A program made the translations under genes and the position numbers. A DNA stretch of 64,000 nucleotides, from positions 1 to 64,000 of the forward strand of contig NZ_VUNN01000007.1 in NCBI RefSeq assembly GCF_009695635.1, given 5' to 3'. The notes beneath the pieces were generated by a model that saw nothing but the letters and a program-made list of their open reading frames with translations, was not told where the DNA came from and did no database searches. Position 1 is the stretch's first letter; every line of letters starts with the position of its first letter. The stretch is from Bullifex porci. GTDB taxonomy: Bacteria > Spirochaetota > Spirochaetia > Sphaerochaetales > Sphaerochaetaceae. Shown here in pieces: positions 8,742 through 11,340 of the stretch.

Positions 8742-9082
8742 AGGGACCTCCTTTTTTTGTGGTAAACATTAGCTTTTTCTGAGCGATTCAATATGAATCC
8801 TTAATACTATTTTTCTTTACCTCTTTAATTAATTGTATTGTCATAATTGATCTATGAGCAAGGAAAAGTTACTCTCATAGCTTAATTAGTTGATTGATAC
8901 ATGGAAAAATTTTGACCCAAAAGTTTTCAAAAATTTTGATTAAAAAAAATAACCATCTTAACTCATTACATAACAACAAGATGGCTTATTCATAAGATAT
9001 TGATGTGGATTAAACACTAATTATTCTTGTGCTCAACCTCTAAAGACGGGATAATAAAGAGTTATATATATGCTGCGAAAAA
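8742..9082. other. Intergenic region left of the TnpB element
   Basis: Contains the upstream region of the leftward acidic-protein gene and a leftward terminator (separate entry) but no credible gene. Short frames in the region are AT-rich and hydrophobic by composition and lack ribosome sites. Confidence 0.5.
8941..8984 (-). terminator. Orphan leftward terminator
   Basis: CCATCTT (8953-8959) pairs with AAGATGG (8978-8984); on the minus strand a T-rich run follows (8941-8951). No leftward gene now lies to its right, since the TnpB element begins about 100 bases away. It may be the tail of a gene lost when or before the element arrived. Confidence 0.5.
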
Positions 9083-9102
9083 CCCTCACGCTTGCGTGTG
9101 GG
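9083..9102 (+). repeat. Left-end hairpin of the TnpB element
   Basis: CCC-T-CACG pairs with CGTG-T-GGG around a CTTG loop, leaving a T-T mismatch in the stem. A run of eight T follows at 9113-9120 after a short spacer, so the structure may also stop read-through into the element. Confidence 0.7.
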
Positions 9103-9293
9103 ATGAAAGCAGTTTTTTTTACCTTGAAAATTAACTAGGATAATTAAATATTCTATGTGTATAATAAATCTAGAAAGGAAATAAAAGGGGAATAAGTAAT
9201 ACAAGCATACACAGAAAATAGTAACCATCATAATAATCAATGAAATACTAATAATTTAGCATATCATTAAAATTGTGGAGGAAGATAATAGTA

Positions 9294-11015
9294 ATGGCTC
9301 GTCCCAAAAGCAATAACGTACAAATCAATATTTCTGTTCCCTCTGAATGGAAAACCGAACTTGAAAACCTTGCTAGAATCTATTCAGTTGAGGAAGGAAA
9401 AACCATGATTGATGAAGAGTATAATAAGATACTAAAACAATATCATAAGGTTTCAGAGAGACATATTTTAGCCGTTGAAAGTAATATGCCTTATTCTGAT
9501 ATACTTCAAGTTGTAACTCTTTCAGATAAAATACGAAAAGCAGGAAACGAGCTTGTAGCTCTTATGAGAAAGAATTATGAGCAGCTTATACGCACAAAGA
9601 GATACCGCAAGCTACTTGTTTTGTATGGTAACACCGAAGATAAAAATAAACGTAAGGATTTAGCTAATCAGCTTAGAGAAATGCAGAAAGACTATAATGT
9701 CACATGGGATTATTGTAGAAAATCCATGATTCCAATAGGTAAAAAATATGGAATATATGCTGTTTTTGCCTTAACTAAAGCTGAGGATATTTGGGGCGGT
9801 GTAGAGAAATGCTTGTATGGGAGAGGAGCAGCAATTCACTTCTCTAAATACGGAGAACTGCCTTGCATCAGATCAAAACAGATAAATCGTGGTATACCAA
9901 TATCTGTAAAGGATGAGCAGCTACAATTCAAACTTGGTAAGATTAATTTTGGAATAAAGGTAGTTGATAGATTTCAACGAGATGAGGTTAATGCAATTGT
10001 ATCCTATCTTGCAGAATCTGAAAACATAGATAGAAAAGCGGTTAATGCTTTCAAGGAAGATGGCCGTTGCATAGACACATACAGGCCATGCTATGCAACG
10101 CTTGTACCTAAATTAATAAGGCGCAAATACAGGGTATTTTTACACCTGACCATTGAAGGTAAGGCAAAACCAAAATACAACAAGTATGGTAGTCTCCGAC
10201 ATAAGTATGGTAAAGGTATTATAGGTGCTGATATTGGTACACAGACTGTTGCGTATACATCTAATACAGAGGTAGGCTTGAAAAATCTTTCAGAGCGTGG
10301 CAATAGTATTCAAACATCAGAGAGGAAAGAACGACTACTTCATCGTGCGATGGATAGGTCAAGAAGAGCTACTAATCCTCAAAACTATAACGATGATGGT
10401 ATTGTTAAAAAAGGTCGTAAGGATTGGAAATATTCAAATCATTATAAAAAGCTGAAAGCCAAATATTATGAATTATGTCGAATCAATGCAGTAAATAGAC
10501 AACTTGCAATAAACGAGGATGCAAATCATTTACGTAGTTTAGCTAATACATTTGTAACTGAAGAGAAAAATGCAAGCAAGCTCATGAAGCGTGCTAAAGA
10601 AACCACAAAAAATGAAAAAGGTAAATTCAATAAGAAAAAGCGATTTGGCAAAACAATAAAGAACAGGTGTCCTTCTAAATTTCAGACCACTGTACAAAAG
10701 AAATTCGAAGTGACAGGCGGTACATATATCGAGGTTTCTAATAATTATAGAGCATCACAATATGACCATACTGCGGATGATTATATCAAGAAGAAGCTAT
10801 CTGATAGATTGTATAAACTTCGTAGTGGTACCGAGGTGCAGAGAGATTGGTATTCATCATTCTTACTCTATTGTTACGATTATAGAACAAACAGCATAGA
10901 CAAAAATAAATGCAATATGGAATTTGGAAGATTCTACAATATGGAGAAAAAACTAATAGAAAGGATTAAGGTTAATAAGATTAAAGTATTAAACAGTGGA
11001 ATTAAAATAGGTTAA
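9294..11015 (+). CDS. TnpB-type RuvC nuclease with RHH-like N-terminus
   Basis: A 573-residue protein (ATG at 9294; GGAGG 12 nt upstream; the in-frame TTG at 9273 is less likely). Residues 9-30 (VQINISVPSEWKTELENLA) look like a ribbon-helix-helix DNA-binding start. The C-terminal half is TnpB-like: RuvC-I GADIGT with Asp313, RuvC-II FVTEEKNA with Glu423, RuvC-III VQRDWYSS with Asp518. The CxxC...CxxC zinc ribbon normally between RuvC-II and III is replaced by SQYDHTADDYIKKKLSDR, which has no Cys. The catalytic triad is intact, so RNA-guided DNA cleavage is plausible by homology. It is longer than typical TnpB (about 400 residues). Related zinc-ribbon-less TnpBs exist in gut Firmicutes, from memory. 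Confidence 0.8.
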   Translation: MARPKSNNVQINISVPSEWKTELENLARIYSVEEGKTMIDEEYNKILKQYHKVSERHILAVESNMPYSDILQVVTLSDKIRKAGNELVALMRKNYEQLIRTKRYRKLLVLYGNTEDKNKRKDLANQLREMQKDYNVTWDYCRKSMIPIGKKYGIYAVFALTKAEDIWGGVEKCLYGRGAAIHFSKYGELPCIRSKQINRGIPISVKDEQLQFKLGKINFGIKVVDRFQRDEVNAIVSYLAESENIDRKAVNAFKEDGRCIDTYRPCYATLVPKLIRRKYRVFLHLTIEGKAKPKYNKYGSLRHKYGKGIIGADIGTQTVAYTSNTEVGLKNLSERGNSIQTSERKERLLHRAMDRSRRATNPQNYNDDGIVKKGRKDWKYSNHYKKLKAKYYELCRINAVNRQLAINEDANHLRSLANTFVTEEKNASKLMKRAKETTKNEKGKFNKKKRFGKTIKNRCPSKFQTTVQKKFEVTGGTYIEVSNNYRASQYDHTADDYIKKKLSDRLYKLRSGTEVQRDWYSSFLLYCYDYRTNSIDKNKCNMEFGRFYNMEKKLIERIKVNKIKVLNSGIKIG

Positions 11016-11215
11016 AATCTTAATAATAGGGAGAATGACTGTACTTCCTTGCTGAAAAGCAGAAATTTATCGCTAATGTGGTCGTAGGACTGCTTGATAA
11101 TGAAAGTCCTGATTCAAATAGGCTTACACTTGTAACTCCAAAGTCTGAAAATGATGTACGATTACAAGCTACTCTTGGTAATCAGAACCCCATGGGCTTG
11201 CCCGTGGGAGCAGTC
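11016..11215 (+). ncRNA. Probable omega-RNA region of the TnpB element
   Basis: In characterised TnpB elements the guide (omega/reRNA) is transcribed from the 3' end of tnpB through the right end, with the guide taken from flanking DNA. Here about 170 nt separate the tnpB stop from the right-end hairpin. The segment also contains a 61-codon open frame (11039-11221) without a good start. The RNA role is inferred from position and the hairpin; 5' and 3' ends are not determined. The flank starting about 11216-11222 would supply the guide. Confidence 0.4.
11189..11208 (+). repeat. Right-end hairpin of the TnpB element
   Basis: CCCATGGG pairs with CCCGTGGG (one T-G wobble) around a CTTG loop identical to the left-end loop. 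It lies about 175 bases downstream of the tnpB stop. Confidence 0.7.
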
Positions 11216-11340
11216 AGATGATAAGAGTTATCATATATATCTTGAGCTTTATCCAAGATTAAAAGATTTATTTCAAAACAAAAACTATTTACAACCTTCT
11301 AAGCCATGATATTATTTTCTCATACAAGGAAGGTAAAATT

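What the first reader, a model, noticed from the sequence alone, without database searches (positions are those of the whole stretch)
9083..11221. TnpB-only element with a ribbon-helix-helix-like N-terminus and no zinc ribbon
The TnpB here keeps the RuvC triad (Asp313, Glu423, Asp518) and has two end hairpins with identical CTTG loops, but lacks the CxxC pairs between RuvC-II and III and starts with a segment shaped like a CopG/RHH DNA-binding domain (residues 9-30). A DNA-binding front end on an RNA-guided nuclease could bind the element's own ends or promoter, or direct target choice. TnpA is absent. Zinc-ribbon-less TnpBs are known; I am not aware of a described RHH fusion.
Basis: partly seen in the sequence, partly recalled or inferred. 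Interest (0 to 1): 0.6.

Follow-up and report, generated by a model that had tools for sequence, protein, structure and literature searches.

The report
Deletion-fused TnpB from RHH-carrying transposon
The odd DNA-binding-like front end of this RNA-guided nuclease is a leftover: a 470-base deletion removed the transposase gene and glued the first half of a small regulator gene onto the nuclease gene, but the intact relatives show that some IS200/IS605 transposons carry their own regulator gene, which I found no description of.

Summary
A 573-aa TnpB (9294-11015) without a zinc ribbon keeps the RuvC triad D313/E423/D518, lies between CTTG-loop hairpins, lacks tnpA, and starts with a CopG-like segment. 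Relatives in Lachnospiraceae, Erysipelotrichales and spirochaetes carry three genes in the order RHH (55-65 aa), tnpA, tnpB. The window copy is a 470-bp deletion between 10-bp direct repeats (GAAAAACCAT). It removed the second RHH helix and all of tnpA, and joined RHH residues 1-37 in frame to the tnpB start. Three copies in this genome share the junction; one has a stop in the RHH part. No other genome searched has the fusion. AlphaFold gives residues 1-38 no confident fold. The larger find is the intact RHH gene. It is under strong purifying selection, precedes tnpA in elements with ribbon-less and with zinc-ribbon-type TnpB, and most elements have an inverted repeat ACATAGA-N12-TCTATGT at the promoter, suggesting an autorepressor. 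In eight genomes of one order an RHH gene sits with a TnpA-like gene that has lost catalytic residues, upstream of clpB in seven. I found no prior description in the papers held.

The parts
9061..9065 (+). GTTAT, target/TAM motif 5' of the element
   Evidence: GTTAT precedes all left ends found; empty site of the C45 sister copy in relative G006 reads ...CCTGTTAT|AAGTTTT
9066..11217 (+). whole element, 2152 bp, no target duplication
   Evidence: boundary comparison of own copies and empty site of a sister copy
9083..9102 (+). left-end hairpin, loop CTTG
   Evidence: sequence; same hairpin in relatives
9134..9158 (+). decayed operator-like inverted repeat ACTAGGA-N11-TCTATGT at the promoter; intact in most relatives as ACATAGA-N12-TCTATGT
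   Evidence: 11/14 here (19 of 60 shuffles as good), 12-14/14 in most relatives
9294..9404 (+). RHH gene remnant: residues 1-37 (beta-strand, helix A, start of loop); helix B deleted
9397..9406 (+). deletion junction, single remaining copy of direct repeat GAAAAACCAT (two copies 470 bp apart in the intact copies C27 and L006)
   Evidence: alignment
9405..11015 (+). tnpB proper (536 aa, starts MIDEEYNK), zinc-ribbon-less, RuvC D313/E423/D518 in fusion numbering
11024..11217 (+). predicted omega-RNA scaffold ending at the right end; the guide would start at 11218
   Evidence: conserved across 19 elements; 13 of 50 predicted pairs show two-sided changes that keep the pair; no Rfam match
11188..11208 (+). 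right-end hairpin, loop CTTG

Best explanation
This is a non-autonomous internal-deletion derivative of an IS200/IS605 element of the type RHH-tnpA-tnpB. A 470-bp deletion between two GAAAAACCAT repeats removed the C-terminal half of the RHH gene and all of tnpA and joined the RHH start to tnpB in frame (shown by comparison). Derivatives with this junction now sit at three sites in the genome; they were probably moved by TnpA supplied in trans by an intact copy such as the one on contig C27 (inferred). TnpB most likely still works as an RNA-guided nuclease with the omega-RNA encoded by its 3' end, cutting empty sites next to GTTAT (inferred from the triad, fold and conserved RNA). The RHH stub at most supplies a ribosome-binding site and start codon in place of the lost tnpA-tnpB translational coupling, and has no RHH function (inferred). 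In intact elements the RHH protein is most likely an autorepressor acting on the inverted repeat at the promoter (inferred).
For: Intact RHH-tnpA-tnpB in many loci; exact junction and repeats; three copies with the same junction at different sites, one with TGA at codon 28; empty site for one of them; no such fusion among 139 family genomes or the other collections searched; residues 1-38 pLDDT 29-42; TnpB/Cas12f fold by Foldseek, best E 4e-8; triad; conserved structured 3' RNA; RHH dN/dS 0.02-0.07 in intact elements; promoter inverted repeat; independent tnpA-loss derivative L083 by another short repeat.
Against: The tree cannot decide between one deletion followed by transposition and three separate deletions (25% of bootstrap trees put the fused copies on one side of a branch). 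The RHH part of the fused copies shows no amino-acid change against 1-3 silent ones, but 36 codons are too few to judge constraint. The helix that begins TnpB could in principle stand in for the lost helix. RHH assignment of the parent gene rests on secondary structure and weak fold hits (Arc E 2.5, VapB E 8.2). The operator is decayed in the window's lineage.
Confidence: 0.85

Rival explanations
1. A functional RHH-TnpB fusion: the N-terminus dimerises with itself or with intact RHH protein and directs the nuclease to the element's ends or promoter.
For: The beta-strand and helix A are unchanged in amino acids in all three copies apart from the stop in C1; the fused ORF stays open in two of three copies.
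Against: The most conserved part of helix B (FLDLMRR) is deleted; no confident fold; stop codon in the third copy; confined to one genome; operator decayed in these copies.
Confidence: 0.06
2. The fusion is kept as an expression device: RHH translation signals feed ribosomes straight into tnpB, which in the parent depends on coupling to the tnpA stop. This is compatible with, and sharper than, the best explanation.
For: The tnpA stop overlaps the tnpB ATG in the parent; in L083 the tnpA start is joined to tnpB by another deletion, and L011 reads tnpA-tnpB as one frame, so joins of an upstream start to tnpB recur.
Against: The C1 copy needs re-initiation after a TGA; no expression data.
Confidence: 0.5
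3. Assembly artefact: the deletion is not in the real genome.
For: The genome is in 67 contigs, and the intact copy on C27 is cut by a contig end.
Against: Three copies on three contigs with different flanks and about 3% divergence share the same junction.
Confidence: 0.03

Closest known systems
IS200/IS605 family elements (tnpA Y1 + tnpB), ribbon-less TnpB branch (one relative, 31% identical, in a C. difficile phage is labelled ISCbt1)
   Same: End hairpins, insertion 3' of a short motif without duplication, Y1 TnpA in relatives, TnpB with RuvC triad, 3' RNA
   Different: Relatives of the window copy carry an RHH gene before tnpA; the window copy has lost tnpA and half of RHH
IS1341-type tnpB-only elements (from memory)
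   Same: No tnpA, would need TnpA in trans
   Different: Here the loss is a mapped deletion, with an RHH stub fused on
RHH (CopG/Arc/MetJ/antitoxin) transcription factors
   Same: N-terminal segment and two helices in the intact 55-65-aa gene, next to a promoter inverted repeat
   Different: No Pfam, NCBIfam or PHROG match above cut-off; encoded inside an IS; only half remains in the window
TldR (RNA-guided transcription factors derived from TnpB; PMC13418256; RuvC-dead nature from memory)
   Same: TnpB derivative with a regulatory theme nearby
   Different: RuvC triad intact here

Membership tests
IS200/IS605 family element | Subterminal hairpins, insertion next to a fixed short motif, no target duplication | tested here: met
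   GTTAT at left ends, hairpins at both ends, empty site without duplication for a sister copy
IS200/IS605 family element | Y1 (HUH) TnpA encoded in the element | tested here: not met
   absent from the window copy (deleted), so it is a derivative and not a complete member; present in intact copies, Pfam Y1_Tnp 1e-35
TnpB RNA-guided nuclease | RuvC D, E, D and TnpB/Cas12f fold | tested here: met
TnpB RNA-guided nuclease | Zinc ribbon between RuvC-II and III | tested here: not met
   no CxxC in this family; not shared by all TnpB branches, so not decisive
TnpB RNA-guided nuclease | omega-RNA at the 3' end and guided cleavage | tested here: inconclusive
   conserved structured RNA region; cleavage not testable here
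RHH DNA-binding protein (window N-terminus) | beta-strand plus two helices forming a dimer | tested here: not met
   second helix deleted; pLDDT 29-42
RHH DNA-binding protein (intact gene of relatives) | beta-strand plus two helices, dimer, operator binding | tested here: inconclusive
   helices 17-34 and 40-52 predicted; weak Arc/VapB fold hits; inverted repeat at promoter; binding not tested
TldR | loss of RuvC catalytic residues | tested here: not met
   triad intact

The most novel reading that the evidence does not exclude
A clade of IS200/IS605 elements carries its own RHH autorepressor as a conserved third gene, across two TnpB classes. The RHH-TnpA pair has been co-opted in one bacterial order as an operon of RHH plus a catalytically dead transposase at clpB, i.e. 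a transposase-derived regulator.
Probability: 0.5. Interest if true: 0.65.

Novelty: new variant of a known kind. Interest (0 to 1): 0.4.

Why it matters
The claimed RHH-TnpB fusion would have been a new kind of RNA-guided nuclease; it is a deletion scar. What remains is the intact RHH gene in front of tnpA, with a promoter inverted repeat that makes a testable prediction about how IS200/IS605 transposition and TnpB expression are kept low. The dead-transposase/RHH operon at clpB would be a further case of transposon parts turned into host regulation.

Tried and rejected
Pfam and NCBIfam scans of the fused protein gave only sub-threshold hits. Rfam found nothing. Sequence searches of PDB with the RHH and TnpB profiles found no true relative; ORF56 (2k9i) at E 0.41 is only suggestive. 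A first alignment including RHH rows misplaced them and was not used. A tree to date the deletion was unresolved. The idea that ribbon loss is peculiar to this copy was rejected. Searches of the held literature for RHH or CopG with TnpB, IS605 or IS200 gave nothing describing such a gene among the titles listed and the papers opened; supplementary files and subscription papers were not searchable.

Full report
What is there. The ORF 9294-11015 encodes a 573-aa protein. Its TnpB identity is weak by Pfam but clear by fold: AlphaFold with 21 aligned homologues matched AsCas12f, ISFba1 TnpB and ISDra2 TnpB, although the RuvC core has low-confidence stretches. D313, E423 and D518 are invariant and align with the RuvC residues of a zinc-ribbon TnpB. 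No CxxC occurs in this protein or in its ribbon-less relatives, so ribbon loss is a trait of the branch.

Origin of the N-terminus. The genome search found three full copies plus a split one on C27. Relatives in other genomes match over 2189 bp instead of 1719, with a break after about residue 38. The extra DNA encodes the rest of a 65-aa RHH-like protein and a Y1 TnpA; tnpB then starts at MIDEEYNK. In the alignment the intact copies have GAAAAACCAT twice, 470 bp apart, and the fused copies once. This is the mark of a deletion between short direct repeats. The join happens to be in frame.

Is the fusion used? The C1 copy has a TGA at codon 28. AlphaFold gives residues 1-38 pLDDT 29-42. The second helix, which carries the run FLDLMRR invariant in 17 intact proteins, is gone. 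None of 139 genomes in the family nor the other loci collected has the same fusion. TnpB in the fused copies still shows dN/dS 0.17-0.25, but part of that divergence may precede the deletion.

Mobility. Left ends follow GTTAT and right ends finish CAGTCAG. The C45 copy sits in a site that is uninterrupted in relative G006...CCTGTTAT|AAGTTTT. So either a fused copy moved there or an intact copy moved and then lost tnpA; the tree does not decide. A single deletion followed by transposition in trans is simpler. tnpA loss recurs elsewhere: L083 joined the tnpA start to tnpB through a short repeat, and L089 lost nearly everything between RHH and the TnpB C-terminus while keeping its right end.

The 3' RNA. 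The 190-200 bases after tnpB are conserved across elements whose TnpBs are 54-97% identical to the window's. RNAalifold gives 50 pairs, 13 with compensatory changes. This fits an omega-RNA; no Rfam family matches.

The RHH gene in intact elements. It is highly conserved (85% mean column identity; dN/dS 0.02-0.07). The predicted fold is coil, helix 17-34, helix 40-52, consistent with an RHH monomer; fold hits include Arc and VapB but none is significant. An inverted repeat ACATAGA-N12-TCTATGT lies just inside the left end over a TTGACA/TATAAT-like promoter. Of the 38 IS-element upstream regions scanned (L016 and L084 are one locus), 25 score at least 12 of 14, and in each of these at most 2 of 60 shuffles do as well. 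Its distance to RHH varies from 39 to 624 bases where extra ORFs intervene; where the left-end hairpin was found by the same scan the repeat usually lies 40-90 bases from it, except in the divergent L035, L042 and L044. I noticed the motif by eye in these same promoters, so the shuffle counts are not an independent test. The window copies have a decayed form.

The same gene precedes tnpA in a second group of elements whose TnpB is 386-395 aa and resembles L081, the zinc-ribbon type (L121-L123, L125, L126), and directly precedes a zinc-ribbon TnpB in L081. In the order of G590, nine of 71 genomes have an RHH relative. In eight of them it is followed by a TnpA-like protein; all eight have lost the first His of HUH, and seven also the Tyr. 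In seven, a clpB-like gene follows. One of these dead proteins still scores above NCBI's IS200 transposase cut-off.

Known or new. Text searches of the open library found no description of an RHH gene in IS200/IS605 elements or of an RHH-TnpB fusion. That is absence from the held papers, not proof of novelty. The assigned finding itself is an internal-deletion derivative of a known kind of element; the parent architecture is a new variant as far as I can tell.

Noticed in passing
L110-L117 (genomes G590, G788, G1359, G1367, G1369-G1372): RHH gene plus TnpA-like gene with the HUH first His lost in all eight and the catalytic Tyr in seven, both under purifying selection (dN far below dS), upstream of a clpB-like gene in seven; promoters share a palindrome such as TCTATTATGATAGAAT over the -10.
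   Followed up: partly
L121, L122, L123, L125, L126 and L081: RHH gene also precedes tnpA and tnpB in elements with the 386-395-aa TnpB type, and directly precedes a zinc-ribbon tnpB in L081.
   Followed up: partly
L031, L034, L040 upstream of tnpB: RelB/DinJ-like antitoxin genes directly upstream of tnpA-less copies of this TnpB, in L031/L034 with what looks like a remnant of the tnpA end. Not tested against chance.
   Followed up: no
L014, L075, L076, L088, L089; L007, L012, L017; L011, L016, L086: Different extra ORFs (about 150 aa in L076 and L088) between the promoter repeat and the RHH gene, as if the element carries exchangeable passenger genes.
   Followed up: no
L011 2670-4691: tnpA and tnpB read as one 673-aa frame.
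   Followed up: no
L128, L129 2468-2638: RHH relative in two IMG/VR contigs, next to what looks like a replication gene and outside any recognised IS.
   Followed up: no
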